Positions 4,364-55,095 of a stretch of DNA of 64,000 nucleotides are shown here, in pieces. The stretch covers positions 1,026,001 through 1,090,000 of the forward strand of contig WPIO01000094.1 in the NCBI GenBank assembly GCA_009760855.2. The letters run 5' to 3'. Each line of letters opens with the position of its first letter. The stretch's first letter is position 1. A model generated the notes under the pieces. It ran no database searches and was not told the DNA's origin. It saw nothing but the letters and a program-made list of their open reading frames with translations. This DNA is from Cristatella mucedo. Its lineage: Eukaryota; Bryozoa; Phylactolaemata; Cristatellidae. The position numbers were made by a program, and so were the translations under genes.

Positions 4364-4517
4364 CTCGGCCTTCGCAATGCTGCTAGCCCTGGCGGTGACT
4401 GTCACAACTCGGTTTTCGCCACTGACCAGCCCGAGTAAATCGGACGACTTCACTGCTACGCGTACGATCTCTCCCACCAAGTACGATGCCTCTGGAATTA
4501 GATCAACAGATGCTTCA
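4364..4517 (-). CDS. PDCD11: PDCD11/RRP5 homologue, coding exon 6
   Basis: Residues 246-297: one base completing a codon, then 51 codons, ending in phase 0. The acceptor is gttttgagcag and the donor is GAG|gtacgt. It encodes YLVGEIVRVAVKSS, then GENRVVTVTARAS. This matches the KVGQxLxCxVExV ... VVSLSVGHS segment that closes the second S1 repeat in PDCD11, and the distance from the preceding AFL motif is within one residue of the vertebrate protein. Divergence is higher here than in exons 3-5. No further exon was found to the left, so about five sixths of a typical protein of about 1,870 residues is missing from the window. Confidence 0.7.
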
Positions 4518-4937
4518 CTGCTCAAAACAAATTATGAAAAGCTTGCGAATGCACTCGTGATTATACACAGACGAAACATATAAAACATGACTCCACGATG
4601 GAGCCAGCGGATGGTCTGCTGATTGTGCTAAGGCTAAGAATAAGTACTTAAGGCTTGCAGCTGATAGCTTGGCCTCGTGCAACATCCCGGTTGGTTGGCT
4701 GCACAATGCGATTGCTACCATAAGCCGGTACAAGCCACCGAGGCTCCTCTTCTGCTATAGAAACGAGAGGCAGCTAAATCGGTCGATCCTTACTACATAC
4801 GCTCAACAGAATCTCGAACACCTGTCCGTTCACAGTTGTAAATATAATACACTAATTTTAGCATGCTTTCCCTGGGCATCGCTTCATGACACAGTCTCGG
4901 CTGGCATGCAGAGAGTATCTACTGCGGTGGCAAATAG

Positions 4938-5045
4938 TAATAATAATAATAATAATAATACACTTGATAAAGCACCCTCAGAGAACTCAATCTCTCTCTA
5001 GGCGCTTTGCATTTGCTGGAAAGGGAAACGCAATTGAATGGTGAT
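4938..5045 (-). mobile_element. LINE family B 3' tail
   Basis: Minus-strand copy of the conserved family B end: (ATT)n, then the tail containing ctcagagaactcaatctc, and the ttgctggaaagggaaacgc segment. Only the 3' terminus is present. Confidence 0.75.
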
Positions 5046-5617
5046 AGCGTAGTCAGTGGTGGAGCTAGGGGCAGGCAAGGGAGAATTATTCCCATTGCCA
5101 GAACAGGGGGTGAGGAATGCGGCAAGGAGACCTGGGCTGCAGCGCTCTCATCGGGCCGGGCAGGAGCTGAGGCAGCTTGGGTAGGGATATGGGCATGGGT
5201 TTTTATAGGTCCCCTTTATTCAAAAACCTGCGACATTCAAGATTCCATTCAATGAGCAACCGCTGCATGGAAAATAGGTGCCCTCTTCGCACATGGCTTT
5301 CACATGACGACCAAACCAGCTCCTTTCGTCCAAGCCTTACTCGAAACCTCGACTTGCTTAATCCCCCCATTGGAACCCAGCACTTACGAATTTTGCACTT
5401 AGACAGCTGCCAACTTCATGCAGCTTAACGGTGATAAGATGTATTAGGTATTTTCAAATATATTATTTCAAATTATAATTACAAATTATAAACATTAAAA
5501 TGTTCAAGCTAGTAGTTTTCAGAAGCGTATCGCCACGACTATGAAGTCGGCCTACTTTCGGCTGAGTAAACATGCCCAAAAACGGGCCTGCTTAGACAAA
5601 AAGTACAACAGCTAACT
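5046..5617. other. intronic sequence, nothing recognised
   Basis: Between PDCD11 exons 5 and 6. No repeat or exon identified; AT-rich around 5440-5510. Confidence 0.4.
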
Positions 5618-5705
5618 AGTCAGCTATGCTTCTCACTTTCTCTTTCTTTTTGCGTTGAGAAAGTCGATAGCTACCAAATGTGTACCAAAAGCTGCTCAGG
5701 CTTTG
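5618..5705 (+). mobile_element. LINE family A 3' fragment
   Basis: Matches the family A 3' region (tcagctatgcttctcacttt ... gctaccaaatgtgtaccaaaa), as also seen near 3920 and 39885. Confidence 0.65.
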
Positions 5706-5787
5706 GGGGAGGCAATATAAACCTCTCCAGTGTCACACCCTCATAGCATCTCTGCCTTTGTGGGGCTGAGGATGGTGGTACGTTAAA

Positions 5788-7110
5788 TAATAATAATAAT
5801 AATAATAATAGATTAGATACAGCAACCTCAGAGAACTCAAACTCTTTCCAGGCACTAGACATTTGCTGCAAAGAAAGCATGACCGAATGGTTAGAGGTAG
5901 CATGCTCAATAAACATCCAGAATACCATGGCTAGGGGTGACATGCAAAGGGTCAGAATGCAAGTATGGTTAGTGGCAGCATGCACAGTGTTAGCGCCCAT
6001 AGGCACATGTGGGTCGAATCACAAGAGACCCACTAAATACTGTGATAAACGGATGCATTTTAGGTTCTTTTTAAATGTGGTCAAGTCGGGGGATGTCGGG
6101 ACGAAAGTCGGGAGTGAGCTCCAAGCTTCAGGAGCATAAAAACTAAAGGCACGGTCTTACAAGGATTTAGAGTTTAGCGTGAGCTGTAGGTAAATAGATT
6201 CCGAAAAGTAGGTGGTACGATGCTTAGCCTGGTGGGGGAGAACATTTGATAGGTAGGCTGGAGCCAAAGAATGAAGGAATCTAAAAGTGAGTGACAAAAC
6301 CTTGAAGTCGATCCGTTGCTTGACTGGGAGCCAGTGCTAGTCGGCAAGAAGTGGTATAGTGTGGCAACGGCTACGCTCACGACAGACTAGCCTAGCTGCA
6401 GAGTTTTGCAGCAGCTGTAAGGGCCTGATTGCACAGGCCGGTAGATCATCAAGCAGTGAGTTACAAAAGTCCAGACAGGATGACACAAATGCATGGACCA
6501 ATTTAGATGTGGTATCTCTGTCTAAACAAGCTCGAATTTGAGCAATGTTATGTAATGTATCTCCGTCTGTAACTCCACAAAGCCATAGAGCTGAAAGTAG
6601 GTACACTTGACTGCGGACCTGATGTGGTCGTCTAATGAAGGTCACTTTGGAACATGACACCTAGATTTCGTGCAGATTCAACAGGAGATATGCTGGCAGA
6701 GCCGATTTTGAGCATTAGCCTTTCCAATTTATGAATCACACTTGGTTTGCCTAACTAACTAGTAAGTTGGTTTTTATCATTCAATTTAAGAAAGTTTGCT
6801 GCTATCCATGTGGGGATGTAATCAATATATGCAGCAAGGGAGTTGAGAGAATTTGATGTGCTCGAGGGCCGGGAGGGATAAAAGCAAAGGTACAACCAAG
6901 TGTCATCCGCATAGAAGTGAAAGCCGAGATTGTGCCTGAAAAGCACATTGGCAAAAGAACAGTATAAACCGTGAAAAGTAACGGACCTAGCACGGAGCCC
7001 TAAGGTACCTCATATTTCAGAGGTTCCTCAGGTGGGTCGTTGTCCATTCACATTAATACTCTGGATTCTCCCACTGAGATAGGACCATATACCATTACAT
7101 GTCCAAGGCA
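5788..7110 (-). mobile_element. LINE family B, 5'-truncated copy
   Basis: A minus-strand copy from the (ATT)n tail (5788) through the 3' UTR with its GCATGC-rich repeats, up to RT motifs near 6990. On the minus strand HFYADDTWLYLCFYPS (the YADD catalytic box) and LDFCNSLLDDLPACAIRPL are readable. Frameshifts and stops make it inactive. It lies in the PDCD11 intron between exons 5 and 6, in sense with the gene, and carries a tiny family A insertion near 6550-6588. Confidence 0.8.
6550..6588 (-). mobile_element. ultra-short LINE family A 3' end nested in family B
   Basis: About 35-40 bases (atgtatctccgtctgtaact then ccacaaagccatag) equal to the last bases of family A interrupt the family B sequence, which is continuous in the copy at 56040. 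This looks like extreme 5' truncation during target-primed reverse transcription. Confidence 0.65.
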
Positions 7111-8056
7111 AAACAAATATGTACAACCAAAAGATTAGTAACTCTGTGGTTGAAGAACAGTAAATAATCTTACAAATTGATTACAAAGCTGAATTCAGGA
7201 CATAAAAGGTCAGAACATTGACATTTGAAGCTTATAAGTGTGGCCTCATCTTACTGTTTTCGTCAGGCTTGTAAAGGACTATATTCATCTTCCTAAGACA
7301 GAATGAAAGAGGTTTTGAGAGACTACCTTGTCTATCACAAATCGCTGAGGCCATGATATTCCTAAGCAAAAAGCCATTTTGTACTTGAGTGTGAAAAAGC
7401 TCAGACCGTTGTCATGGTGTTAGTTCTATCGAATCTACAACAGTGAGGTCAAATACACATGTGGCACGGAGGCAGAAAGTAAATACATTTAAACCAGAAT
7501 TTCACGAATGAAGATAAGTTGGTAAATGCAAGCCTTGAAATACTGAGCCTAATCATTCGAAATCGAACCGTAATAACTTGGCTATTGATCTAGAAACTCG
7601 ACTACCTATTAATCACACTCATTTACTCAAATACTACTCAAAATGCTGCATGCATGCATGAAGTAACGCATATTTATGATTGAACGATCGGCACAAATCC
7701 TCAAGAAACTGCCTTCATAGGATGGCCAGCCTTCAAATGGGAAGTTCGTCATGAGTAAGAACTTGCTCCGTTAGTCATAGAGACCAAGTGACAGGCCACG
7801 AGCATCTTATAAGGAGATTTCTTGGTAGTTGGATGCTTATGACTAAACTTGTAAGGATGCCACTTTCAACTTATTTGTATAAGGTCGCCATCGGCAACAA
7901 AAGCTAAATTTAGCTAAGCAGAAGAGAAGAAGACGGGCATATTTATGTGCATGTGAGCGAACACAGATAAACCAGGTAAGATAAAAAGAAAATGCACCCC
8001 AGCACGGTGAATACGGGGAGGCTGATACAAAACCAAAATAGAGCGAATTAAGTCAC
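7111..8056. other. PDCD11 intron sequence, nothing recognised
   Basis: AT-rich; no repeat family or exon seen on either strand. Confidence 0.5.
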
Positions 8057-8160
8057 GTACTGTTCAGCTTGTTCCTGGCAAGAAATGCAGTCACACCAGA
8101 AATACCCAGATCCACAGTATAGCCATGGTCTTCTTCACTGCTGATGGCACCATACAGGAC
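8057..8160 (-). CDS. PDCD11: PDCD11/RRP5 homologue, coding exon 5: second S1 repeat
   Basis: Residues 212-245 plus two bases. It encodes VLYGAISSEEDHGYTVDLG then SGVTAFLARNKL. The SSxEDHGYxVDxG core followed by AFL is highly characteristic of the second S1 repeat of PDCD11. The acceptor is cgattggcag, with a poor pyrimidine tract. I chose the donor TAC|gtgact over the alternative ACA|gtacgt four bases earlier because only the former gives phase 2, which exon 6 needs. The exon is too short for most ORF callers and was found by splice-aware reading. Confidence 0.85.
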
Positions 8161-8686
8161 CTGCCAATCGATACGGTACCCGCTCACATCAATTGTGAAT
8201 GCAAGATCAAGTAAAAAACTGGTAAACGTAAGTCAGTATGGTACGATAGCCAGCTCGACAGTGAACAGCATAAATATCTTTCGGCTAGCTCTGCGCTCCT
8301 CGGCTGCCGTGTCCTGCCATAGCAGCAATGCTAGCAAAGCCTAATGCCAGCCTGATTTATTATGTAGCTTCTACGAACAAACTTGCTCTAGATAAAATGC
8401 CAAAAACACAAGGCCGAAAAGAAAGAAGGCCTGTCTATTGATCATTATGGAATAATAATATTATCAACCGAGTTGTCAGCATGATCTAAATAGTGCTCCA
8501 ACCCCTAAAAATCTCGAAAGCTAACTCGAATGCAGAATGTCTGGTCGTCCTTGATAGTGTAACCTACACACCACCGTATCTGAAGCAAAGCAATTTCCAA
8601 GTCGTATACATGAGAACTTGCAGTAGAAAATGCACAGCAGCCACAATAAAGCAAGATGCATCTACATTCACTTAAAGAGTCCTTTG

Positions 8687-8760
8687 ATAATAATAATAAT
8701 AATACATTTGATAAAGCACCATCAGAGAACTCAATCTCTTTCTAGGTGTTTTACATTTGA
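8687..8760 (-). mobile_element. LINE family B 3' tail
   Basis: (ATT)n plus the tail (atttgataaagcaccatcag ... aggtgttttacatttg), minus strand; only about 75 bp, in the PDCD11 intron. Confidence 0.7.
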
Positions 8761-9354
8761 TAGTCTGGCAATTAATAATTTCCAAACACCTCCACCCCGA
8801 TTTCCTTCTAGTGATGGCAGAATTGGAGCAAATTTCAATACCTTTAGCAACAATGATCATGCGTTTAACAATCAAACGAATGGATACACGATGAAAGTGA
8901 CCGAAAATAAGAAAATAGTAGGGACTCGGGCTGTGAAGTGACATGGATAAATAAAGCATGACAGCACACAGAAATAGCATGCCAGTAAGACCGTATAGCG
9001 ATAGAGGTAGCCATCCAGGGAATTAATCAGCTTGTAGCAGAGCCCCTAGATTGTGTGAATTCATAGTTTGTGTGTTCAGACTGCTTCTGACATGCCAAGG
9101 TGTCCAAACGGTACATCATTGGTGTTTATTACACGTGGCTGTGCAATAAAACTGAACCTGTACAAAGGATTATGTTTCTACTTACGAGGAAGGCATCTGG
9201 CAGCTGCTAAAGGCCCTTACTCAGACACCGACCAGGTTTGAAATGTCAGGCTTGGCTATGAAACCGTTGGTTAGTGACTGGTATGCACAGTCTAGGCACA
9301 CAAAGCAAAACTCACTCGGACCCAGCTAATACTTCACAGAACATATGTGTTTCT

Positions 9355-10200
9355 ATTTCGCTTTAAATATCGTCTAGTCAGGGGACGTCGTGACGTCAGT
9401 CGGAAGAGAGTTCTGGGCTAGGGAGAGCAAGTGCTAAAGGTATGGTCTCGTGAGGATCTGAGGTTACTTAGAGGCACAGCTAAACGACTTGAGTCAGAAA
9501 AGCTGGTAGTAAGCTGCCTGGCCTGATTAGGAAGTAGTTCAAAAATGTATTATTAATAATAATAATAATCACTTGACAAAGTGCTCTCAGAGAACTCAAT
9601 TTCTTTCTAGTCGCTTTACATTTGCAGGGAAGGGGAATGCGATTGAATGGTTAGTAATATCATGCTTGATAAACAACATGAATAACATGGTTAGGGGTGA
9701 CATGCACAGGGTCAGCATGTAGGTGTGGTTAGTGGCAGTATGCACAGTGTCAGCATGCATAAGCACATAAATAACAAACCACAGAGACCCAATAAATGCT
9801 CTCATAAGTAGGTGCGTTTTTAGGTTCTTTTAAAATATGGTCAACATGACACTTAGATTTCGTACAGACTCAATAGGAGATATGCTGGCATGCCGATTTT
9901 GAGCGTTAGCCTTTCTATAGTAAGAGGACGGAGCCTAATAGAGAGTGACAAGCCCTTGCTGTCGATATGCTGCTTGATTGGGATCCAGTGTAGGTTGGCA
10001 AGAAATGGTGTAATGTGGCACCTGCAATGTTAACGACAGACAGGCCTGTCTTCACCTCAGTTAATTGCAATCGCCTTATTGCACTTGTCAAAAATCCTGT
10101 AAGTTGCGGCTATAGACGTGGAGATGCATTGCAAATGCATGGACCAACTTAGTCGTGGCATTTCTTTCTTAGCAGGTCCGAACTTTTGCAGTGTGACATA
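9355..10200 (-). mobile_element. two nested or adjacent LINE family B fragments
   Basis: 9355-9545 matches the RT C-terminal part of family B (tcaggggacgtcgtgacgtca ...). It is followed by a fresh (ATT)n tail and 3' UTR (9552-9840), then by further family B coding remnants to about 10200. The order is best explained by one copy inserting into another. All is degenerate. Confidence 0.65.
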
Positions 10201-10589
10201 GCAAAAGTAGGCCCCGAAGTGCTAATGTGGGTTTATTGTTCTCTTAAGGTGCAATATAAATGACCTATTATTATTATAATTAATATTATTACCATCATCA
10301 ATCATACTTTTCAGTGGTAGCAGGTAACTGTGGTTTTTAGCACAAACACCAAAGCAGGAGCTTCATAATTGGGAAGCTGAGAGTGAGCCTTCACTTTTGC
10401 CTGACCGTAAAAAATTCTTTAGGATATACTTATGACATCTTAGCTAGCCTGCTAAAAGGTAAGAGTATAGTTTTCTAAACAATCGGTTCATGTATAAGTC
10501 GGCTAACATTGCCGGGAAACACCAGAGGAGGAACACATGGACAGAAAATGAGGTCCATTGTAAATAAATAAATACTAGCTGACTTAACA

Positions 10590-10679
10590 ACATGTTTTGT
10601 ATAATAATAATGCAATTGATAAAGCGCCCTCAGAGAAATCAATCTCTTTCTAGGCGCTTTACATTTGCTGCAAAGGGAG
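10590..10679 (-). mobile_element. LINE family B-type 3' tail joined to SINE2
   Basis: Tail (taataataatgcaattgata ... ttacatttgctgcaaaggga) directly joined to the 3' side of a SINE2 body at 10680. It is either a chimeric SINE or a SINE/LINE junction; see findings. Confidence 0.65.
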
Positions 10680-10823
10680 TGTATAGCGATAGAAGAGCCT
10701 TAACGGCTATCACTGCCGCTTGCAGTGGCAATAAAGGACAGCCCACAGCAGGATTCGAAACCACGACCTCGGGATCGAGGTCATGAAAGCAACCGTCTTA
10801 CCCAGTGTGCCATTATGGCTCAC
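10680..10823 (-). mobile_element. SINE2 (tRNA-derived)
   Basis: Minus-strand copy. It starts ggtgagccataatggcacac (A-box-like), has a B-box-like ggtttcgaatcc, then the SINE2 body (tgccactgcaagcggcagtg; gttaaggctcttctatcgc). Confidence 0.75.
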
Positions 10824-10903
10824 CAGAGTGTGCCTCTCAAATACTTTTGCCTGTAAGTACATGCATGCAATGGGCAATACAAAGAGCAGCTTTTGCTACT
10901 TAC

Positions 10904-11059
10904 GGTACCACTTTTTAGTGACATCACGGTCAGGTATTGATTCACATCTCGAGGGTTGAGCGTTAACTTAATTCGCCCTCCCAGCGCAGTCGGTGTCGAA
11001 ATAACTTTACAAGCAAAGACAGAGCCCAGCGTGAACATGTCCTCCAGTGGATGAGGCTC
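10904..11059 (-). CDS. PDCD11: PDCD11/RRP5 homologue, coding exon 4
   Basis: Residues 160-211 (52 codons). It encodes EDMFTLGSVFACKVIST, then GGRIKLTLNPRDVNQYL and SLKSG. The LSLNPKxVN-type motif followed by LKxG is the end of one S1 repeat and the start of the next in vertebrate PDCD11, with the same spacing. The acceptor ctctattctttcag is strong and the donor is ACC|gtaagt, phase 0 on both sides. Joining exons 3, 4 and 5 gives an alignment to the vertebrate protein without a length change in the LKSGTVLYG region, which supports these exact boundaries. Confidence 0.88.
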
Positions 11060-12404
<1,345 letters not shown>

Positions 12405-12592
12405 GAGAGAACGAGAGATGAGAGCACTAGAGTGATGCAGGGGCAGGTTGTCCAAGGTATCAAGAGATTCACGCAATCCGAAGGAAAAGCGACACTGATA
12501 GAGCCCACAACTGACCAGATTGAGCAGACAGAAGTGTTGTAGCAAACCTAGTCGTAGCAGCTGCCTTTCAGCAGCTGCTGGTCCTCGCTCAC

Positions 12593-12796
12593 CGTAATAG
12601 CGGCCACATTGCCTTGACCAGCTGCCTCGGCGGCTGCACCAGCTGCCTCGGTGTACCGCTGTAGTACAGCCTTGTAGCCATCTGAGATGTCGGCAATCGA
12701 CACGTAGCCGGTAAGATTGTTCGGCAAGCCCATTACAAGGCCATAGTCATTAACCTTCTTTACACAGCCAAGTACTAGCAGCCCATCAGCAATCCG
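12593..12796 (-). CDS. PDCD11: PDCD11/RRP5 homologue, coding exon 3: first S1 repeat
   Basis: Residues 92-159. This is the most recognisable part of the gene: GLLVLGCVKKVNDYGLV followed by GLPNNLTGYVSIADISDGY. It is the start of the first S1 (OB-fold) repeat of PDCD11/RRP5, whose vertebrate version reads G-x-x-ILGCVKEVN ... LPNGLQGFV ... IxDAY at the same spacing. It is followed by an alanine/glycine-rich insertion (residues 149-162 region, AAGAAAEAAG). The acceptor is ttgtgtttgcag and the donor is ACG|gtgagc; both are phase 0. The frame runs on for 14 codons past the donor to a stop, but the next exon matches the family only if the donor is used. A 142-bp (GA)n tract lies 190 bp further into the downstream intron. 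Confidence 0.88.
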
Positions 12797-13173
12797 CTGC
12801 AAACACAAAATTTCAAGTACTTCTGTTAGTCTTCACATGCAGGCACAGAGTACAACACAACAATCGCTGGTCACTTAACTCTAGTATACTTGGTACCGTC
12901 AAGATAAATGTTCAGTCAAAGTACATAGAAAATAAGGAAGTCAATCCTGCTCCCTTGTAAAATAAGCATACATTCCCTTACTACACGGTGTACAGTGTAT
13001 GACTTTAAAGACTATTATAGTTAATACACAGCACACGTTAAAGTTAAATTCTTGCATCCATGATAAGTGGTTCTCGTGAAGCGAATAATAGCCAAGAGTA
13101 GTTAGGCACATCATTCCAGACATCATTTCAGATAAAAACTACAGTAGGCGTTATAAAGGCGATAAAGCCCTTT

Positions 13174-13300
13174 CGCTGCTTTGGCCTAGTGGTTAAGGTG
13201 CTCGAGGTCATGGGCTCGAGCACCGAGGTATATGTGAAGCACCTGAAAAGAGATTAAGCTCTCTTGTGGCGTTATACAAATGAATAATATTTTTTTTATT
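13174..13300 (+). mobile_element. SINE1 (tRNA Ser/Leu-like), with LINE-B-type tail
   Basis: A-box ttggcctagtggttaagg, B-box gggctcgagcaccg, then the shared tail gaagcacctgaaaagagatt and gttatacaaatgaataat, ending in T-rich sequence. Confidence 0.85.
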
Positions 13301-14499
13301 ATTTATTTATCACAAGGCTTAGAAAGAAAAAGTCAAAACATTACCGTACCAAGCATAAACTTATCTGCAGACGGTAGGCTCCACGGTACAAAAAACTGCC
13401 CCTCGCAATTAGAGCCAATACATACAACTGAGAAGGGTTCTAGTTCAATGATCAACTAGTGTGTTAAACTTTTTTTTTTTTTTTTACAACAGATCAAACA
13501 AGCTGCCAACAAATTTCTCCGGCAACTCTGTGGCCAACTAGCACCTAATAGATGCTGTTCATGGAATCGTCAAAAACGTGAAGAATACTTTTTTTTTAGA
13601 AGATGCTCCACTTTGAATATTCATAGATTTCGTTCCCTTAACAAATTTAATGTAACGTATATCGTCTACAATTCCACAAAGACAAATTAGGTGTTTTGGT
13701 GGAGGTTTGATTTGGTTGAGGCAAGCACGGCATGACAAGGCAACCAGGAATGGCAACTCAAAAAAAGTGTTACTATTATTACTTGCTTATATCTGGGAAA
13801 AGACAACTCAAACTCTGGAAAGAAGTATGCCCGCTCTGGCAGTTCTTTCTTTAGATAGCCAAAACGTGATGAAAAAATACAATTCAAAATAAATTGCATA
13901 ATTTTATGATCGAAATGAAGTTAATTGCTATAAGTGCAACAGTATTGCTCTAATTTTTCCACATCCATTGCTATACAAGTTTAGAGCTCTCAGTTTTGGT
14001 AGTTTTTACTTAAGGCTTTTTCAATGTAATTTAATTTTCAACAGGAAGTGCATTTTGCAAAATTCAAATTTACATACATTCGAGCTATTTTCTCACTGGT
14101 CATCGCCGGCAAGCAAATAAGCAGCAACTATCGTTTACGAGATTTATGAAAGTATGGACATACATTAAAATAAGAGTAATTTTTAATTATATTTTCACAT
14201 TTAACAGTAAATGCATTCTCTAATTCATATTTTAATAAGCAAATTGTGCAGGCACACTTCACACTGGTCAGACTTGCCTAACGAATCAGATGTGATATCC
14301 GTTATGAGTTACTTAGGTGCATTCCAAAAGATCGGTTATCAAAAGAGCCATTGACTTTCTACATATGGTGATAAATAAGGTTGGTTGCCAGGTAGGCGGA
14401 CAAATCCAAGAGATTCAGCCGGTGTCTCCTTTGTTAAATGAGCTGCTATGGCCCTAGGTAGATCAATGGATACAAAGCAAAATCACTACTCTGACGGAC
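13301..14499. other. PDCD11 intron sequence, nothing recognised
   Basis: AT-rich with T-runs near 13470 and 13585; no gene or repeat family seen. Confidence 0.45.
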
Positions 14500-14998
14500 A
14501 AGGCCTGCCATGGCTTGGCTCCTTCATATGCATACGAAAGGCTGCATCAGCTTCAGCCTCCTGGAATCCCCAGTTCGTCTTTGAACAAAAACATAGCAGT
14601 TCAATTCCTTTGCCTATAGACTGTTAGAAACAGAAAATTTTGCTCGGCAGGTCCTAGAATGGAAACTCACTTTCACAATTCGTATGCAACAACATAAATT
14701 CTCCTGCCGCCGACAGCAGCTCAGCATGATACCACTCATCATTCAATCGCGTTTCCCTTTGCAGCAAATGCAAAGTATTTAGAAAGAGATTGAGTTCTCT
14801 GAGGGTGCTTTATCAAGTGTATTATTATTATCCTTCCAGACGTCCACTTCTATTCAACTCACATCCTCGACTCCCCCCCCCCCCATCTCTGCTATGCCTC
14901 TCTTTTTGCGGTGCGAGATAAAAGTCGGTTGGTTAGCATATGCAAATCAAACACAGCCAAGGCATTTATGTGCTAGGCAAAACTCACCAGCATAGCTC
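14500..14998 (+). mobile_element. LINE family A fragment, split by a family B insertion
   Basis: 14500-14725 encodes a degenerate KARHGLAPSYL ... LWNSLP region of family A. Its 3' part resumes at about 14834 (catcctcgactcccc ... gctatgcctctctttttgc). Confidence 0.75.
14726..14833 (+). mobile_element. LINE family B 3' end nested in family A
   Basis: Tail segment (atgataccactcatcattca, ttgcagcaaatgcaaag, gattgagttctctgagggtg, then (ATT)n) placed inside the family A copy. Confidence 0.75.
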
Positions 14999-15225
14999 TG
15001 CGAAAATACAGACATAGATAAATTAAATCTCTCTTTTTGAGCTCCACTTGTTCGAATCTGAGTTCTGAATGTTCTCTTGCTGGCACATTAATGGAAGCGA
15101 GAAAAGTGCTGTAGCTAAGGCTCTCAACTCATTAAAGGACATGGACCATTCACCACAAAGAGCAACTGTATAGCCGTGCCACCGAGCCTCTAGCTCTAGC
15201 CACTGCTGCCTATGAATAACAACCC

Positions 15226-15226
<1 letters not shown>

Positions 15227-15292
<66 letters not shown>
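15227..15292. repeat. (CT)n microsatellite
   Basis: Perfect CT repeat of about 33 units in the PDCD11 intron. Confidence 0.97.
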
Positions 15293-15293
<1 letters not shown>

Positions 15294-15686
15294 AAAGAGA
15301 CCTCTCGAGAGGAATTCATGCTCTGCCATTGCCAAATTATTTGCCGCATAACCTGCTACAACCCTTTTTGAGGTTAGGCTATCAAAACACAGGCCGGCTT
15401 TCATGTGAAGGTATTTGACTTCAGTAGACAATAGGATCACTCGCCGGGTCTTGCTTGCTGGCCTGTTCACAGCTGCCCTCGTGAGACTACCTCTGCTGAT
15501 GCTGCACAAGGCTCCATATAGAATTTTGGCAAAGCACCCTTACAGTTCGAGATTTTTTCGATTGCTGCATTTAACAGGCCATGCTCACAAATATCCTTCA
15601 TTGATAAGCACAACATGCAGGTCTGCCCCAAGCGGTGATGCTACACAACAGGGAAGATGGACGTTTTGCGAATGTGCAACACTTAC

Positions 15687-15839
15687 CCTAGTTGTAAGAG
15701 TCTCAATACTCACGGCGCCATCCTGGACCGTGGCACTGGCTCGCTGCTTCTTCTTGCTTTGCTGCTTAGCGCTTTTGGACTTGGGCAGCACTTTCGGCAG
15801 TTTCTTCTTTAGCTTTCTATCCACAGTCACCACTGAAGT
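15687..15839 (-). CDS. PDCD11: PDCD11/RRP5 homologue, coding exon 2
   Basis: Residues 41-91 (51 codons, phase 0 at both ends). The acceptor is strong (cgtttcttcttcag before ACTTCAGTG) and the donor is AGG|gtaagt. It encodes a basic linker (VDRKLKKKLPK, then SKSAKQQSKKKQR) followed by SIETLTTR. That is the position and character of the lysine-rich, nuclear-localisation-like linker before the first S1 repeat in PDCD11. A long (CA)n microsatellite begins only about 55 bp upstream of the acceptor. The exon is low complexity, so its identity rests on its place between exons 1 and 3, matching phase and splice sites. Confidence 0.72.
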
Positions 15840-15892
15840 CTGAAGAAGAAACGACTGTCTGGGCTGCTGGCCGTCATAGGTACACATAGAGC

Positions 15893-17104
<1,212 letters not shown>

Positions 17105-17302
17105 GCGATAATAATAATAATAATAACTTTGATATAGCCCCCTAAGAGAATTCAATATCTTTCTAGGCACTTTACATTTGCTGTGAAGCAAGCACGATCG
17201 AATGGTTAGTGGTAGCATGCTCAATAAACAACAAGAATAACATGGTTAGTGGTGACATGCACAGGGTCAGCATGCAAGTATGGTTAGTGGTAGCATGAGT
17301 TA
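17105..17302 (-). mobile_element. LINE family B 3' end
   Basis: (ATT)n, tail, and the GCATGC-bearing 3' UTR (ggtagcatgctcaataaaca; atggttagtggtgacatgca), minus strand, in PDCD11 intron 1. Confidence 0.8.
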
Positions 17303-19287
17303 GCACAACCACCATAGCTTCCTGGCTCTCCCCGCCCCCGACCATATGCAAGAGAAGACGAACTCTCGGCTTTGGAGGAAGGCAGCATCAAGTTATTACA
17401 GGAGACCAACGCTCGATATTACAAGGGATCTTGCAACCAAATCTGAACCAGGACGGCCCTACTGGACAATGATGTGAGTGGAACGTCGACAAAGACAAGC
17501 AGTGGGGATGGGACTCATTCAGTTGTGACAGCACACGTCCTGTCAGCATTGGCTTGCTTAGCTGCTCCGGCTCAACTATAAGATAAGATACAAGATAATA
17601 CTTGATACTAATATAAGATACTAATAATATAAATAAATATAAATATAAATAAACAATACTAATATAAGATAATACTTGACAAGAATGCAGCTTTGTGAGT
17701 ACACTCTATGAGAGGGTACACGGCCAGTACCCCAGTTCAAAATTAACAATTTAACAATTTTCGAAAATAACCACGCGTTAGAGCACTACCCATAAGCACT
17801 AAAAAGGTATCACGCCCACCCCACCTCCAGAGTCAACACAAAGTCTGTGCCACGCTTACTAGCAGGTGAAAAGCAGAAAGAACAGCATGATTTGGGGAAT
17901 TCCTACCGACATGCAAGGCAAATCCTGAACCAACAGCCAAATATTGGCAACCTAAGTCAGCCAGCACTAAGGTCAGCTTTTGAATTTACCTCCAGCATGT
18001 AGTTGTTTAAAAAAGAATTTCAACGAAACCAGCAGCAGTCGTTCAGCCAAAAGCAAAGCTAGAAGTGACTGCTTCTCCAGCACTGGCATTACAAGTATAA
18101 TATAGAAGGTTCAACACATTGGTATCACTAAAATTGAACCACTATTTACTTTTCAATTGAAATGGATGAGCTGGTAGCCCGATAGCCTCTGCTTTCTTAG
18201 GTTTATGCTGTTCAATTCCTCAGCTCAATGCACTACAAACTGCTTTCTTTCTATCGCTAAATATAACACTCGAGGAGCATTCGTCTATAAGGATCCAGTG
18301 GCCAATCTAGCCACTTTCACTGTTATACACTTTTAGTTAAATTGAGTCCAGATGTACTGGCAAGATGCACTCTCATACGTACGATTATTCGAGTTGCTAG
18401 ATCACAGCAAACTAATTTCGGCCCATTCGAGTAATGCTGTCCTGTGGCAGTGATCGATGGACGTCGGCAGCAGCCAGCGATAACTGCATACACGCTAGAG
18501 CCTCAATGTTTTGGAGATATGGCAAGGACAGTCTGCACAAGCTAAGAAGACCCTGAAAAGAATTGGCCTCCGAAGAGGTGAATAAAGATGGCAGAAAACT
18601 TCGACGATTGCCATGGCCACTGCCAAGCAGCTACGTAAGGCTGAGACATTAATAAATCAGTAATGTCAAAAACGACAGGGATTATGTTCAGACGACGGAA
18701 GTCCGACGAACGTCTTTTTGACTGCACCAGCACCGACAGGCACGAAACTGACGGCCACGAGTCCTGCGGATCGATCCTGATATTGTCCTATCTCGAAACC
18801 TTCGCAAAAGACCGCAGCCTAGGTGCGATCGCACCTAGCTCTACGATCCAACGCCTCTTTGCCAGCACCTGATGCAGAGTCGATCTAGAGTTCCGCGCAG
18901 CTGGGCACCGTCCCCGACTCCCAAACCCGGGTATGATTCGCTGTTAGCCCCTCACCCGCCACCGACACGAAGAGGCACGCGCTAAGCATCGCCGCGACGT
19001 CTACTTCACAATTCGGTGCGGAACACTCGGCGAGCAGCAACAACGACACGTGCGGCGAGAGAAAACCACGCGCCAGCTTCCCGACGGCCAGCAGGAGAAT
19101 GCTTAGGTCTTAAGGTCGCCGCGAAACACTCGAGAGCTACACCACCGCAGCATATTTTAAAAGAACAGTTACGACGCAAAACTGCCCTAACGCCGCCTGG
19201 CGTAGCGAGTAGCGGGTGCGGCGCTCGTCCAGCTGAGGAGTGCCGCGCCGCCGGAGCAGCAGCAGCGCCGCGCCGTCGAGTTCGTAC
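17303..19287. other. PDCD11 intron 1, promoter-proximal part
   Basis: Contains an AT-rich ATAAGATA/ATATAAATA repeat patch (17578-17680) and a perfect 20-bp palindrome at 18819-18838. GC content rises from about 18880 towards the promoter. No other exon seen. Confidence 0.45.
18819..18838. repeat. 20-bp perfect palindrome
   Basis: CTAGGTGCGATCGCACCTAG, self-complementary over its whole length, about 570 bp inside PDCD11 intron 1 from the start codon. Its GCGATCGC core recurs in the divergent promoter at 19676-19683. Confidence 0.9.
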
Positions 19288-19407
19288 CCCGAACAAATCC
19301 TCCGCCGCGTCTTCGGCTCTGGCCTTTTTCGCTTTCGGTACATCCGAGCCATCGCCTCCCGAACGCTTTATAGGGTTGCCTCTCGGAAAGTAATCCTCGC
19401 TAGCCAT
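19288..19407 (-). CDS. PDCD11: PDCD11/RRP5 homologue, coding exon 1 (start codon)
   Basis: First coding exon, residues 1-40. RRP5/PDCD11 is a nucleolar protein made of many S1 RNA-binding repeats plus C-terminal HAT/TPR repeats. It works in the small-subunit processome and in pre-rRNA cleavages leading to 18S and 5.8S rRNA. The exon opens MASEDYFPRGNPIKR, which resembles the short FPRG-containing N-terminus of animal PDCD11. A lysine-rich stretch (KAKKAR, residues 25-30) follows, then EDLF, matching an acidic NLF segment in vertebrates. I end it at GGG|gtacga because that leaves phase 0, which the next exon needs. The frame stays open to 19006, but beyond the donor it becomes arginine/alanine-rich and is probably intron. 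The ATG faces the ATP5MK start 431 bp away. Confidence 0.8.
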
Positions 19408-19838
19408 GGCTCTCTAGGGACGTCTGCGGTGCCGCTCGCTACAACACCAGCACCAGCGTGGCCAGTCGACCTTCAACTTGACGTTGTGCACCAGCAAGAA
19501 GCACTTGGTGAGCTAAATTTAGAAAGCGATGCCAGCTAACCAAACTTAAAATGGCTTATAGTATTTTATATAAAATATATAATATTTGAAGAGATCTATG
19601 TTATTAGAGACCCTGAAGCTACTAGCTTTCTTGTTAGTGCTTTCTAGGTGTACGCCTGTGTCCGCTGCGTTGCTGCGATCGCTCCGTAAGTTTGTTTGTC
19701 TGCGTTAGTGTCTCTTCCTCTCGTTCTTTTTCTTGCTCTCTCCCTCTCTTAAACACATAATCTTCTTTGCAAATTTGCAGTTGCCGTACGTCAGTGGTGG
19801 TTTGATTCTCCATTTATTTTGGCGTGCAGTTTTAGAAC
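19408..19838. promoter_or_regulatory. putative bidirectional promoter PDCD11 / ATP5MK
   Basis: These 431 bp separate the divergent start codons and must hold both 5' UTRs and the core promoter(s). The PDCD11 side is fairly GC-rich; the middle (19550-19590) is AT-rich with a TATAAAATATATAA-like run. A palindromic GCGATCGC is at 19676-19683. A pyrimidine-rich stretch with TTTCTAG near 19640 could be a transcription start. CTCC|gtaagt at 19686 and ttttggcgtgcag at 19829 could be the donor and acceptor of a small 5' UTR intron in ATP5MK. Start sites are inferred, not shown. Confidence 0.6.
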
Positions 19839-19925
19839 ATGGCCGGTCACGCCGACGAGTCGCAGTATAAATTCACTGGCTGGCAGAAGAACTTCAACAC
19901 ATACACCAAGAAAGGCAGATTTAAC
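19839..19925 (+). CDS. ATP5MK: ATP5MK (DAPIT/USMG5) homologue, coding exon 1
   Basis: Residues 1-29 of a 64-residue protein. ATP5MK (DAPIT, USMG5, subunit k) is a single-pass inner-membrane subunit of mitochondrial ATP synthase that helps hold the dimer or tetramer together. The exon reads MAGHADESQYKFTGWQKNFN and then TYTKKGRFN. It matches the family signature QYxFTGxxKYFNSYTxxGRxN in order and spacing. The exon ends in phase 0 at AAC|gtaagt, a near-perfect donor. The ATG is the first after a plausible 3' splice site (gcgtgcag) and has an AACATGG context. Confidence 0.9.
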
Positions 19926-21742
19926 GTAAGTCTCTCGTCTCCTGCTGCTCTTCCGTATAGGCGACCAGATACGAACAACTGTCTACTTTACGAAGCTGTG
20001 CTAAATCCGTTGCCGCTAGCCTAGCCGGTAAACCTGGCCGACGTCCGGTTTTACCCGGTCCTGCCTGGGGGGGGGGGGGTGGACGCTGTCGTTGTTTGCT
20101 CTGCTTTGCTTGCTCAGCACGTGGCTCTGCCCTGTGGAGAGACTGGGAGTATTTGTCGATTGTCAAGGGCCTGAGCTGTGCAATCCGCTGCTGTGCGATG
20201 CCCACGATTACGAGCTGAACTTGGACAATTAACCGTGAGTTATGAGTGACTACCAGGCCAGTGTCTAAGGCATGAGACTGACTGCCGTCGCTCTCGGGGA
20301 GCAACGCTCAGCTGGGTGTGGATGGCTCTTTGCGTAATAATGCAGCCGGTCGGGTGAGCTATCAACAGTCACTGTACTTGCCATTGTTACTGTGGTGTGA
20401 CAAATACCATAGGGCTCGTGAATTAGCCACGTTTCTGATGGAGTACATTCATTGGCAGACAGACGGCCTTTTACTTGTCTGCCGATTGTGATGCTTAATT
20501 TTGATCGTGATGCTGATATTCTTGCCACGAGCCTGGGCTCAGTGGTCAGGTACTGTTGAAGCTGTAATAGACAAGGACTGGGATCATCCTCCCTCGTAGT
20601 GAGATCTCTCTCCCTCCCGAGCTCTTTTGTGAACCACTATTAGCTTGCCTGCAAACAGATGGCTACAGGGATGGTTTGGTTTGCCTGAGCTTACATTTAC
20701 CGGACGTCTACACTTCAAACAAGGCCTCTCAGCTGTACACGTCCTTGAAATTCGATGATGGGAATTTTCTTTCCGGTCGTGTTCCATTCTTGTGTGCACG
20801 TGTAAATGAGAGCATGTCGGTGAATAGAGTGTGGATTGATCTTGGCTTGCTTGCTTTGTTTGCACCTATCTGGTATTGCTGGTGACAAGTGCAACTGCCC
20901 TCGTGATCGTGCTGTAAGAAAATGTCAATTATTCCCTGCCATGTCCTGTATTTTTGCTAGCATAGCTGCCGAGTTTATCGAGCTGCTGCTGCTGCTGCTG
21001 CATGATCTGCTGCTTCGACGCTGTTCTGCCTGTCGATGTGCCACGCCAAACCAGCTGTATCCTAGCCAAGGCTAGACCGGCATATGCTTGCGTGTTAGCT
21101 TCTTTGCTTAAGATTGCTCTCTATGGTGTCTTGCTGCTGCTGCCTTTCCTTGCTTGACCTCGTTTTGTCAAGTTCGTGCGTGTGAGTATTGTGCAGGTAG
21201 TGCCCACGAGTGTGTTCTGCAGACATGCATTGTCAGTGGGCCCAAGGATGGCTTTCAGTGCCAATTTGAAGCACCGAACTCCTCGAGGCTGCTCTGTAGA
21301 GCGATAGCTAGGTCGGGCGGTAGAAACCATAGCATTGAGTATGGCCAGTGTGTCTACTCAGGTCACTACCGGGGTCGTACAAGAGTGCCTTCCCTGCTCT
21401 ACACGAGCTGGGTTCGGTACTGTCCACTCCCTCTTCGCTTTCTGTTGACAGCTCGTTTGCTGTTACGTTCTTGGTCACGGTGTTCATCATCTGCTGTAGT
21501 GTCGGTAGCAGCTTCTACCGACTGCTATCCCCCCCTCCCGCCACCGCCTCCGGCTGGCACTGCTGGTATAGGAGATGGTGCTGGCTGGCTGCTGGACTGC
21601 GATTGCTGGAGCTCCAGGCCCCAAGCAGCCTGTTGGTCACGTGCAATATGGCCTGCCCATGCTTTATGTGTCACGCCTTTTCTCCTGTGTCATTAAGCAG
21701 GCGAGCGATTGTCGTCAAGTAAGTCGTGCTTCATCTTTTCAG
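19926..21742 (+). other. ATP5MK intron
   Basis: 1,817-bp intron with gtaagt and cttttcag ends. It has a G-run at 20067-20079 and a short CTG run at 20983-21001. The several 60-180-codon open frames have no conserved features, and no second exon is needed to complete the protein. Confidence 0.7.
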
Positions 21743-21850
21743 ATCGTGGCCAGCACTGTAGGCTTCTCGTTTCTGACGTACATGTGGCTGACAAGAGGGT
21801 CAAAGAGCAAGAGTATTGCTGCTCCTGCCTCGACCGGCAGCCATCATTGA
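21743..21850 (+). CDS. ATP5MK: ATP5MK (DAPIT/USMG5) homologue, coding exon 2 and stop
   Basis: Residues 30-64 and the TGA. The acceptor ttcatcttttcag is strong and phase 0, matching exon 1. The peptide IVASTVGFSFLTYMWLTRGS, then KSKS and a short tail ending GSHH, is one hydrophobic membrane segment followed by a basic cluster. That is the layout of ATP5MK (small residues, hydrophobic helix, LRSKK-type basic end). The joined protein of 64 residues is close to the usual length of about 58. The intron is 1,817 bp. No canonical AATAAA was seen soon after the stop; the 3' UTR end is undefined. Confidence 0.88.
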   Translation: MVASTVGFSFLTYMWLTRGSKSKSIAAPASTGSHH

Positions 21851-22639
21851 CCTGGAGGCTTCAGTTCAGTGGCTTACAGTGGCCACTGTCGACACAAGAG
21901 TGCTGCCGGAACACCCATCGTTCTACTTGCATTTGGCTAACCAGCTAGTAATGCTGTGGTGTTAGTCGCACGTGTGATGTGATTCCCTGAATAGATAACT
22001 AATAATGTAAGGTGTTAAGACTTGTCTATCTAGTTTTGTGCTATCAGCACAGTAGTTTGCCAGCTATCGAAACTGCCTACTGTAAGCCATAGCTTGAATT
22101 TAATGTTCATGTACTAAGGCTACCAGTAATCAATGCTGCTGCTCTGGATTGCCTAGCAAGATAGCCGAATGCTGTTTACAAACGAATCAGCCACTTGTTG
22201 GTCTTTACTGGTGTACCGGTCTGGTATTACTCAGCAACTGTTAAGACAAGAGTGCGCCAGCCAAGACTTCATACCCAGTTGTCCCCACAGACATAATTAA
22301 GTCATCACCTGGGGTTCAGTTCAGTGCTTCTCAAGCTGATATTTAAAAAAAAGCAAATGTATGTGTACAATGTGGTGCGGTCTGTCGGAAGTTTAAGCAC
22401 CTGGTGGCCATACTTGCCACAAAGTTTGAGGCTTTCGGTTGTAAAATATCACACTGCGTTAAGGATAAATTACTTGGCATTGACACAGCCATGGTGATCT
22501 TGAATGTCATGAAAATCAAGAATGTCATGTAATTAATTACTTAATCATGGGCTAATGGAAAGAGGCACCACAATGATTTCTAATCACCCACTGCATGCCG
22601 GCTGGTGTGGGAGCTAGGATTTTCCCTAGCTTCAGTTTT
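21851..22639. other. downstream of ATP5MK; 3' UTR and intergenic
   Basis: Should contain the ATP5MK 3' UTR end, but no canonical AATAAA was identified. Nothing else recognised. Confidence 0.4.
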
Positions 22640-28485: not shown

Positions 28486-29990
28486 TTATGTAATGTAATG
28501 TATCTCCGTCAGTAACTCCACAAAGTCATAAAGACCATGTGGGTGTTACCCAGGAGAGTTTTGTATAGCCCACTCACAGCCTAAGCGGCTTTCGGTACGC
28601 ATTCGGTAGCCAACAGACTTCGTCTCACGCAACAAAGAGAAAGTGGGAAGCATAGCAGAGTCAGGAGAGCAGTTGAGGTAGTGAGTAGCATAGAAGTAGC
28701 AGTTCAGGACCGCTGAAAAAGATGAGCCATAGTCGGCAGTTGGAGAGTAGTTGTCGTTGCGTAAGAATTGTGGAAGCGAGTTCCGCAGTCTAGGATCTGC
28801 AGAGCTAAAGCTTCTGTCGCCAACTGTCTTTAAGCGGAGGAAAGGGACAGCTCATTTATTGTCCACACAGGACCTGAGGGCGTGAGTAGGCTGAAACTGA
28901 TGTAGCAGTTCAGCTAGGTACGAAGGAGCCAAGCCGTGGCGGGCCTTGTGGGTCAGCGTAAGAAGTTCGCTCTGTATCCTTTGCTCAACCGGCAACCATC
29001 CTAGCTCTTTCAGCAGAGGTGACACGTGCTCAAACCGCTGGGACTTGAAGACCAGCCTTGCAGCCATATTCATAGTCCACTGTAGTGGCATAATAGCTTT
29101 CTTCGGCAGCCCAGCCATAAGGGAATTACAATAATCAAGCCGAGACAGAACTAAAGAGCTAGTTAAATTTTTTACAAGCCACTGTGGGGAGACAGCTTCT
29201 AATCTTGGATAGGGATCGGATGTGATGGCTAGCTGTAGAGGCAGTCTTCTGAATGAAGCTTTTGAAATTGAGGCAGCTGTCGAACACGACACCTGGATTA
29301 CGAGCACGTGGTGAAGGTCGCACAATAGCATCACCTATTAGAGCAGCAAAGCCTTTTAGTCCAGCCACACGCTTAGGGTGTCCTATGAGCAGCAGTTCGG
29401 TTTTATCGTCATTCAATTTCAGGAAGTTTTCCGACATCCAGGATCGAATATCGGCAAGGCAAGCATTCAGTTTCTCAGTTGCTGCAGCAGATTCCGACGG
29501 TTTAAATGACAAATACAACTGAGCATCGTCAGCATAGAAGTGGTATGCTATTCCATGGGCCTTAATCACTTTTCCCAGAGGTTGTGTATAAATGGAGAAC
29601 AGCAAGGGACCGAGTACAGACCCTTGAGGGACTCCACAGGTGACCCTTCTCATGTCTGAGACCTGACCCCCACACTACACGGATTGAACACGATCAGACA
29701 AGTATGATTTAAACCACGCCGGTGCTTCGTCTGCCAGACCGATCGTTGTCCTCAATCGTTCAAGCAGAACTTCGTGATCAATGGTGTCGAAGGCAGCAGA
29801 CAGATCTAGCAGAGCTAGGGCAGTGACATTCCCGTCGTCGTTGCCACGTAGAATGTCATTGTTAACACGGAGGAGAGCATTCATTAGCTTACCGAGTACA
29901 ACGCTCGTAAGGAGGCGGCAGAGAGAACGAGCGCGGCGGACGTCAGGGGAGTGAACACAAGGCACACTGCAGAATAGGCGATACATCGGA
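28486..29990 (-). mobile_element. LINE family A, youngest long copy (RT domain)
   Basis: Minus strand, 3' end at 28486 with (TAATG)n-like tail. Three long open pieces cover [22 protein letters not shown], then [20 protein letters not shown] and [13 protein letters not shown] (catalytic YADD), then the RT C-terminus (DYCNSLMAGLPKKAIMPLQ ... KARHGLAPSYLAELL). A TAG at about 29672 and a frameshift near 29160-29330 break the ORF, and the 5' half with the endonuclease is missing. Very similar to 38505-39416. Confidence 0.88.
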
Positions 29991-30002
29991 GGTAGAACCT
30001 GA

Positions 30003-30165
30003 AAAAAATATTAGCTAATTTAATAGCCTCATTTGGTATAGTTGCAGAAGAGCCGTCCTATCGGCTAAGTCCATCGCTCGCAGTTGGCTGGCACTGAAAG
30101 ATCGCCCACAGCGAGATTCGAGTCCATGACCTCGGTCATGAAGATCGAGCACCTAGAGAATAGAC
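30003..30165 (-). mobile_element. SINE2 copy
   Basis: Minus strand: ttagctaatttaatagcctc at the 3' side, gatcgcccacagcgagattc with a B-box-like gactcgaatct, and gaccgaggtcatgg. It abuts the 5' end of the family A copy. Confidence 0.65.
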
Positions 30166-38504: not shown

Positions 38505-39416
38505 CCATGTCATGCATCTCCGTCAGTAACTCCACAAAGTCATAAAGACCATGTGGGTGTTACCCAGGAGAGTTTTGTATAGCCCACTCACAGCCTAAGC
38601 GGCTTTCGGTACGCATTCGGTAGCCAACAGACTTCGTCTCACGCAACAAAGAGAAAGTGGGAAGCATAGCAGAGTCAGGAGAGCAGTTGAGGTAGTGAGT
38701 AGCATAGAAGTAGCAGTTCAGGACCGCTGAAAAAGATGTGCCATAGTCGGCAGTCGGAGAGTAGATGTCGTTGCGTAAGAATTGTGGAAGCGAGTTCCAC
38801 AGTCGAGGACCTGCAGAGCTAAAGCTTCTGTCACCAACTGTCTTTAAGCGGAGGAAAGGGACAGCTAATTTATTGTCCACACAAGACCTGAGGGCGTGAG
38901 CAGGCAGAAACTGATGTAGCAGTTCAGCTAGGTACGAAGGAGCCAAGCCGTGGCGGGCCTTGTGGGTCAGCGTGAGAACTTTGCTCTGTATCCTTTGCTC
39001 AACCGGCAACCATCCTAGCTCTTTCAGCAGAGGTGACACGTGCTCAAACCGCCGGGACTTGAAGACCAGCCTTGCAGCCATATTCATAGTCCGCTGTAGT
39101 GGCATAATAGCTTTCTTTGGTAGCCCAGCCAAAAGGGAATTACAATAATCAAGCCGAGACAGAACTAAAGACCTAGTTAAATTTTTTACAAGCCACTGTG
39201 GGGAGACAGCTTCTAATCTTGGATAGGGATCGGATGTGATGGCTAGCTGTAGAGGCAGTCTTCTGAATGAAGCTTTTGAAATTGAGGCAGCTGTCGAACA
39301 CGACACCTAGATTACGAGCACGTGGTGAAGGTCGCACAATAGCATCACCTATTAGAACAGCAAAGCCTTTTAATCCAGCCACACGCTTGGGGTGTCCTAT
39401 GAGAAGCAGTTCAGTG
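38505..39416 (-). mobile_element. LINE family A, young 3' copy with open RT C-terminus
   Basis: Minus strand. A 248-codon open frame (38560-39306) covers the RT C-terminus intact: LDYCNSLLAGLPKKAIMPLQ, KARHGLAPSYLAELL, RLWNSLPQFLRND. The catalytic YADD region is absent because the copy stops at 39416 inside the LLLIGHP region. It is nearly identical to 28500-29400. Confidence 0.88.
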
Positions 39417-44880: not shown

Positions 44881-44969
44881 AATTGAAAAAGCTCGCGAAA
44901 ACCGAACAGTGTCATGAGTGAGCTGACTGAAACTGCCATGTTTTTAATGGCTAACTGGAAGCATTCCAT

Positions 44970-51661: not shown

Positions 51662-52714
<1,053 letters not shown>

Positions 52715-54963: not shown

Positions 54964-55095
<132 letters not shown>

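What the first reader, a model, noticed from the sequence alone, without database searches (positions are those of the whole stretch)
4364..21850. Divergent PDCD11 / ATP5MK gene pair: ancient head-to-head microsynteny
Six phase-consistent exons give the N-terminus of PDCD11/RRP5 on the minus strand, and two give a complete ATP5MK on the plus strand, with 431 bp between start codons. As I recall, these two genes are also adjacent and divergent in human (10q24). A ribosome-biogenesis factor and an ATP-synthase assembly subunit sharing one promoter across distant animals would suggest selection on co-expression.
Basis: partly seen in the sequence, partly recalled or inferred. Interest (0 to 1): 0.82.

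Follow-up and report, generated by a model that had tools for sequence, protein, structure and literature searches.

The report
Ancient head-to-head housekeeping gene pair
In this invertebrate genome a ribosome-building gene and a mitochondrial ATP-synthase gene sit back to back only 431 bases apart, just as the same two genes do in humans; this looks like an old, inherited arrangement of a well-known kind.

Summary
Six GT-AG exons on the minus strand (4364-19407) join in frame into the N-terminus of PDCD11/RRP5; two on the plus strand (19839-21850) give a complete 64-aa ATP5MK/DAPIT; the start codons are 431 bp apart. PDCD11 continues beyond the window, about 90 kb in all, with collinear matches to the human C-terminus and clean controls. 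The ATP5MK intron falls after codon 29, where the human intron lies.

The host has an invertebrate-type mitochondrial code. The recalled human arrangement is right: a fragment of the human ATP5MK-PDCD11 promoter, chr10:103,396,330-103,396,860, enhanced both reporters (PMC9740945). Chance re-pairing is very unlikely, so the pair was probably inherited from a common bilaterian ancestor.

Not shown: that the 431 bp drive both genes in this animal, that they are co-expressed, or that co-expression is what selection kept. No other invertebrate genome could be searched. Ancient divergent pairs with bidirectional promoters are a known class; this is a new example as far as my searches reach.

The parts
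19288..19407 (-). PDCD11/RRP5 exon 1, from the ATG
   Evidence: donor GTACGA, phase 0; starts MASEDYFPRG (human, recalled: MANLEESFPRG)
15687..15839 (-). PDCD11 exon 2 (Lys-rich linker)
   Evidence: CAG acceptor, GTAAGT donor, phase 0; no tblastn match of its own
12593..12796 (-). PDCD11 exon 3 (first S1 domain)
   Evidence: tblastn to human residues 70-119, E 4.9e-9; S1_RRP5 match, also found in the genome-wide Pfam search
10904..11059 (-). PDCD11 exon 4
   Evidence: tblastn to human residues 139-196, E 0.008
8061..8160 (-). PDCD11 exon 5 (start of second S1 domain, EDHGYTVDLG)
   Evidence: tblastn to human residues 189-215, 59% identity, E 5e-4; 1wi5 match
4364..4491 (-). PDCD11 exon 6
   Evidence: CCAG acceptor restores the frame after phase 1, GTACGT donor; no tblastn match of its own
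19839..19925 (+). ATP5MK coding exon 1 (29 codons)
   Evidence: PF14960 in the genome search, 40.8 bits
21743..21850 (+). ATP5MK coding exon 2 with stop codon
   Evidence: whole protein PF14960 8.3e-14, PDB DAPIT chains
19408..19838 (.). 431-bp gap between start codons: inferred bidirectional promoter and 5' UTRs
   Evidence: no repeat-like sequence (window 32%); role inferred from the human counterpart, not measured here
19686..19829 (+). possible ATP5MK 5'-UTR intron (donor CC|GTAAGT, acceptor TGCAG|TTTTAGAACATG)
   Evidence: consensus match only; human ATP5MK has exons before the one ending at c.87 (PMC7802768)
19548..19555 (+). YY1-like AAAATGGC in the gap
   Evidence: weak, consensus match only
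19836..19843 (+). YY1-like AACATGGC over the ATP5MK start codon
   Evidence: weak, consensus match only

Best explanation
This is the orthologous PDCD11-ATP5MK divergent pair, inherited with its head-to-head order from the common ancestor of this invertebrate and vertebrates. The 431 bp between the start codons most likely work as one bidirectional promoter region with two oppositely directed start sites, serving two constantly needed genes: PDCD11 (RRP5) for rRNA processing (recalled) and ATP5MK for ATP-synthase dimers. Shown here: gene identities, order, spacing, the homologous ATP5MK intron, one ATP5MK over the family cut-off in the genome, no repeats in the gap. Shown in print for human: a fragment of this promoter enhances both reporters. 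Inferred: common inheritance (about 0.95), two-way promoter activity in this animal (about 0.8), selection for co-expression as the reason for retention (about 0.3).
For: Exons, spacing and frame. Family and PDB matches. Collinear remainder of PDCD11 up to human residue 1859, with clean controls. One ATP5MK over the cut-off, one full-length DNA match of its intron. Intron after codon 29, with no gap before it in the alignment to mammalian ATP5MK, equals the human c.87/c.88 junction (PMC7802768, passages). Human pair and both-reporter activity (PMC9740945, passages). CpG observed/expected 1.26-1.40 at 19000-19599 against 0.74 for the window. Gap and ATP5MK intron without repeat-like sequence, PDCD11 introns 27% repeat-like. 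Mitochondrial code: of the codons under the COX1 profile match, 10 of 10 ATA align with Met of PDB chain 5j4z_BN (9 of 10 in 7o37_a, 1 Leu), 8 of 8 AGR align with no Arg, 2 of 2 AAA align with Lys.
Against: No transcript or chromatin data for this animal. Only two lineages are compared (human from print, this genome from sequence). CpG enrichment peaks over PDCD11 exon 1 and intron 1; the gap itself has CpG o/e 0.91 and 44% GC, and 400-bp windows from 19400 and 19450 rank only at 77-78% of the window, so two abutting promoters fit as well. Of 19 promoter motifs, none of the NRF1, ETS, full CRE, CCAAT, GC-box, E-box or E2F patterns occurs in 19301-19900. At E<=1e-3 human residues 216-466, 619-760 and 822-1591 found no PDCD11 match (the low-complexity 1370-1615 set aside). 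TAF5 and CALHM, human neighbours by recall, gave no match, but neither did the controls, which decides nothing.
Confidence: 0.82

Rival explanations
1. Passive retention (not exclusive of common inheritance): the pair is ancestral, but nothing selects for co-expression. Two separate, abutting promoters leave no room for a breakpoint or insertion that would not damage one of two needed genes, so the order persists by default.
For: The gap is tiny and repeat-free in a repeat-rich stretch. The two products share no complex that I know of (recalled). CpG content differs between PDCD11's 5' end and the gap.
Against: In human one 531-bp fragment of the region enhanced both reporters, so shared activity exists at least there.
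Confidence: 0.45
2. Independent pairing: the two genes came to lie head to head separately in the two lineages.
For: Only two lineages are compared here.
Against: My rough estimate (about 1,000 human divergent pairs, from 'over 10% of human genes' in the abstract of PMC12672016; about 25,000 genes placed at random) gives some 0.02 such coincidences for a whole genome, and this pair has the same orientation and a short gap in both.
Confidence: 0.03
3. The gene models are wrong: a PDCD11-like S1 fragment or pseudogene beside a chance small frame.
For: Single-exon matches are short; S1_RRP5 passes its cut-off only narrowly (28.1 against 27 bits); long parts of human PDCD11 found no match at E<=1e-3.
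Against: Six in-frame exons with canonical sites; C-terminal matches of 36-58% identity in order on the same strand and no match in controls; ATP5MK has the homologous intron.
Confidence: 0.01

Closest known systems
Human ATP5MK-PDCD11 bidirectional promoter, hg38 chr10:103,396,330-103,396,860 (PMC9740945, passages)
   Same: Same two genes, same divergent order; same ATP5MK intron after codon 29.
   Different: Human activity was measured with reporters, here it is inferred. PDCD11 spans about 90 kb here, in repeat-rich sequence.
Conserved ancestral microsyntenic pairs of metazoans (Irimia et al. 2012, cited in PMC5429095 and PMC3815023; itself not held)
   Same: Two unrelated neighbours kept together across distant animals, here divergent.
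   Different: Whether this pair is in their list could not be checked; the cases described in the passages of PMC5429095 (such as Isl2-Scaper) involve enhancers inside a neighbour's introns.
Ancestral chordate bidirectional promoters (372 cases, PMC6292497, passages)
   Same: Divergent gene pairs with close start sites, enriched in housekeeping functions.
   Different: Defined by CAGE and microsynteny in chordates; I did not see the list of pairs.

Membership tests
ATP5MK / DAPIT (PF14960) | Profile match over the curated cut-off, along nearly the whole profile | tested here: met
   51.3 bits against 25, residues 1-49 on profile 1-48 of 50
ATP5MK / DAPIT (PF14960) | Intron after codon 29 as in the human gene (c.87+1) | tested here: met
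   19839-19925 is 87 nt; human site from PMC7802768; gapless alignment up to that residue
ATP5MK / DAPIT (PF14960) | Incorporated in ATP-synthase dimers | not testable with these tools
   needs biochemistry
PDCD11 / RRP5 | Tandem S1 domains at the N-terminus | tested here: met
   S1 with 2 stretches and S1_RRP5 over cut-off; Rrp5 chains 2.9e-22
PDCD11 / RRP5 | C-terminal repeats (HAT/TPR-like, recalled) following the S1 array in one gene | tested here: met
   human residues 1592-1859 matched in order on C681:963052-955831, best E 4.3e-15; outside the window; human sequence recalled
PDCD11 / RRP5 | All central S1 domains present | tested here: inconclusive
   residues 467-618 and 761-821 matched; 216-466, 619-760 and 822-1591 without a match at E<=1e-3
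Bidirectional promoter | Divergent start sites less than 1 kb apart | tested here: inconclusive
   start codons are 431 bp apart; the start sites themselves are unknown
Bidirectional promoter | One fragment drives transcription both ways | not testable with these tools
   reported for the human fragment only
Conserved ancestral microsyntenic pair | Same pair adjacent in distantly related animal lineages | tested here: inconclusive
   human and this invertebrate; its phylum is a guess, and no third lineage could be searched

The most novel reading that the evidence does not exclude
The pair is one of the few divergent pairs kept from the bilaterian (or older) ancestor because one promoter, perhaps with YY1-like elements, sets ribosome production and ATP-synthase assembly together, so that the gap is a fixed regulatory coupling of nucleolus and mitochondrion.
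Probability: 0.15. Interest if true: 0.55.

Novelty: new member of a known kind. Interest (0 to 1): 0.3.

Why it matters
It extends a promoter known in human to an invertebrate, probably a spiralian, so the same two-gene unit can be tested in two very distant animals. If deleting one element lowers both genes in both, the pair becomes a direct test of whether old divergent pairs are kept for co-expression or merely cannot be broken. As it stands it is one more example of a known class.

Tried and rejected
Other genomes: a viral-contig scan with PDCD11 exon 3 (17 pattern matches, 0 confirmed) and scans of genome contigs (123 matches, 0 confirmed) and viral contigs (122 matches, 0 confirmed) with an ATP5MK alignment found nothing, as expected for collections of viruses and prokaryotes.

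Wider synteny: TAF5 (PF04494) and CALHM (PF14798), human neighbours by recall, gave no match in the own genome, and none in the controls, so no conclusion. Pfam on 111 of the 221 non-repeat frames of 48 aa or more to the right of ATP5MK found nothing; on 86 of the 328 frames of 70 aa or more beyond the far end of PDCD11 it found six families: Ig_3, I-set, ig, zf-C2H2_12, DUF4371 and a hAT dimerisation region. Rfam and tRNA scans of the window: 0.

A second ATP5MK-like match at C550 (18.6 bits, below cut-off, E 0.85) was read and looks like chance. Four of the five S1_RRP5 places lie on C3; the one examined is bacterial pnp, and all four were set aside. Of 19 motifs scanned in 19301-19900, half-CRE, YY1 (two spellings), TATAWA and TCT matched; I followed only the YY1-like one, and its shuffle P of 0.0005 (1 of 2000) is before correction for that choice. 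The sigma-70 scan is not meaningful for an animal promoter.

Papers: Irimia 2012 is not held. Text searches (listings seen) showed me no paper that reports this pair in an invertebrate; supplements could not be opened, and lists there may hold it (PMC12672016 counts 66 human divergent pairs conserved in Drosophila and 50 in C. elegans, in its Table S3, not seen). The main texts of PMC12672016, PMC3815023, PMC11676430 and PMC5560861 hold no 'PDCD11' (passages only); PMC5727169 holds neither 'synteny' nor 'PDCD11'.
Full report
What was claimed and what is there. I rebuilt both models from the sequence. The coordinates hold: PDCD11 exons at 19288-19407, 15687-15839, 12593-12796, 10904-11059, 8061-8160 and 4364-4491, ATP5MK exons at 19839-19925 and 21743-21850, and 431 bases from 19408 to 19838. 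Exon lengths of 120, 153, 204, 156, 100 and 128 give an open frame of 287 codons; the introns of both models begin with GT and end with CAG.

Identity. The 287-aa join matches S1 (1.2e-6) and S1_RRP5 (3e-6) in Pfam, the 64-aa product matches ATP_synth_reg (8.3e-14). In the PDB the first finds two long Rrp5 chains (2.9e-22, 3.4e-20; fungal, by recall) and the RRP5-homolog S1 domain 1wi5 (2.3e-8); the second finds 6 distinct sequences up to E 1, all named DAPIT or ATP synthase subunit k (best 2.3e-7). ATP5MK has 39% and 37% identity to the two mammalian chains aligned.

Is PDCD11 whole? The window is C681:1026001-1090000 of a 572-Mb assembly in 688 contigs. I fetched 200 kb to the left and 40 kb to the right and ran tblastn with human PDCD11, whose sequence I recalled. 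Minus-strand matches run in order from human residue 70 at C681:1038823 to residue 1859 at 955831. Leaving out residues 1370-1615, which are low in complexity and match microsatellites, there are 11 matches at E<=1e-3 in 10 places: residues 70-119, 189-215, 467-507, 503-566, 565-618 (its exon is also matched by 476-531), 761-821, 1592-1652, 1652-1708, 1751-1810 and 1815-1859, with identities of 34-59%. Residues 216-466, 619-760 and 822-1591 found no match at that level; weaker ones exist. The reversed query gave 0 and ten shuffles gave 0 each. From its ATG to the last match the gene spans about 90 kb and keeps its N-terminal S1 domains and its C-terminal repeats; the middle was only partly recovered.

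Copy number. DNA of the ATP5MK intron (20500-21800) matches the genome once in full plus one 33-base piece elsewhere. PF14960 gives one match over its cut-off; a second, far weaker one looks like chance. S1_RRP5 finds 5 places: 1 is the window's exon 3, 4 lie on contig C3. The one C3 locus that I examined encodes a bacterial polyribonucleotide nucleotidyltransferase, so C3 appears to be bacterial.

A shared intron. The ATP5MK coding intron comes after codon 29 in phase 0. [quoted passage not shown] the alignment has no gap before that residue. This supports orthology apart from the protein score. Human ATP5MK thus has exons before the one ending at c.87; a candidate 5'-UTR intron is visible here at 19686-19829, on consensus alone.

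What animal? The mitochondrial contig C688 (21,008 bp) was read in full. In the part of COX1 under the profile match, 10 of 10 ATA codons align with Met of PDB chain 5j4z_BN (9 of 10 in 7o37_a, one Leu), 8 of 8 AGA/AGG codons align with no Arg (3 Ser, 3 Ala, 1 Thr, 1 Gly), and 2 of 2 AAA align with Lys. By the known codes (recalled) this points to table 5, which excludes vertebrates, echinoderms, cnidarians and most sponges; the ascidian code (AGR=Gly) is less clearly excluded by this count. The gene order holds cox3-K-A-N ... I-nad3 and nad1-nad6-cob-S-(T)-nad4L-nad4-H-nad5-F (protein genes named by my reading of the frames), blocks that I recall from chitons and other spiralians. A spiralian is my best guess; the species is not identified.

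Comparison with human. Random placement would produce about 0.02 such coincidences per genome by my rough estimate (about 1,000 human divergent pairs, after PMC12672016; about 25,000 genes), so common inheritance is by far the likelier reading.

The gap itself. CpG observed/expected is 0.74 over the window, 1.40 at 19000-19399, 1.26 at 19200-19599, 0.89 at 19400-19799 and 0.91 in the gap proper (44% GC); the windows from 19400 and 19450 rank only at 77-78% of all. The CpG-rich domain is thus centred on PDCD11's exon 1 and intron 1, not on the gap. No repeat-like sequence lies in the gap or anywhere in 18175-22623, while 32% of the window and 27% of the PDCD11 introns are repeat-like, measured only against 304 kb of this contig. 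Of 19 motifs, NRF1, ETS, full CRE, CCAAT, GC-box, E-box and E2F did not occur in 19301-19900; two YY1-like AANATGGC sites lie at 19548 and over the ATP5MK start codon (shuffle P 0.0005 before correction for the motifs tried). These facts fit a compact promoter region; none proves two-way activity, and the CpG and motif results do not favour it over two abutting promoters.

How it most likely works. One short region carries two start sites pointing apart. PDCD11 serves rRNA processing and ATP5MK serves ATP-synthase dimers; both are needed in growing cells (recalled). Whether the order persists because joint control is useful or because the gap cannot be broken without harming one promoter is undecided. 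PMC6292497 (passages) reports 372 putatively ancestral bidirectional promoters in chordates, the majority lost in vertebrates (54.5% in stem vertebrates), and PMC5429095 (passages) discusses ancient pairs kept by cis-regulation, so the class is well established.

Verdict. Real, correctly read, conserved between human and an invertebrate; ordinary in kind, new as an invertebrate example as far as my searches go, with the lists in supplements unseen. Co-expression as the selected trait is unproven.

Noticed in passing
G000:C688 (mitochondrial contig, L029-L031): The 21,008-bp mitochondrial contig carries a tandem duplication of about 2.1 kb (offset 2,115) and a 238-bp block repeated 17.6 kb apart; cox2 and nad2 lie on the strand opposite to the other protein genes that I recognised.
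   Followed up: partly
G000:C166:4375626-4376390; C83:2826-3735; C549:2641741-2642010; C299:634220-634540: COX1-like stretches on other contigs, probably nuclear copies of mitochondrial DNA; the C166 copy of 765 bp has no stop other than TGA.
   Followed up: no
G000:C3:107254-337586 (L036, L037): Contig C3 looks bacterial: L036 encodes a polyribonucleotide nucleotidyltransferase (equivalog, 702 bits), and the S1 places lie in frames of 435-785 aa; two of them, 57 kb apart, score the same. A symbiont or contaminant in the assembly.
   Followed up: partly
window:50909-51661:-: A 251-aa open frame, Ser-rich and without a second copy in 264 kb, without a Pfam match; possibly a long exon of an unrecognised gene.
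   Followed up: partly
window:6160-7009:-, 28549-30010:-, 38563-39306:-, 44887-45342:+, 47657-48275:+, 55527-56558:-, 60241-61257: Broken LINE-type reverse transcriptase pieces (motifs such as GSVLGPLLF and YADD, named by eye) repeated along the contig.
   Followed up: no
window:15894-16095, 12259-12424, 51964-52122, 54965-55092: Long dinucleotide arrays: (CA)101 in PDCD11 intron 1, (GA)82 in intron 3, (GA)79 and a perfect (TA)64.
   Followed up: no
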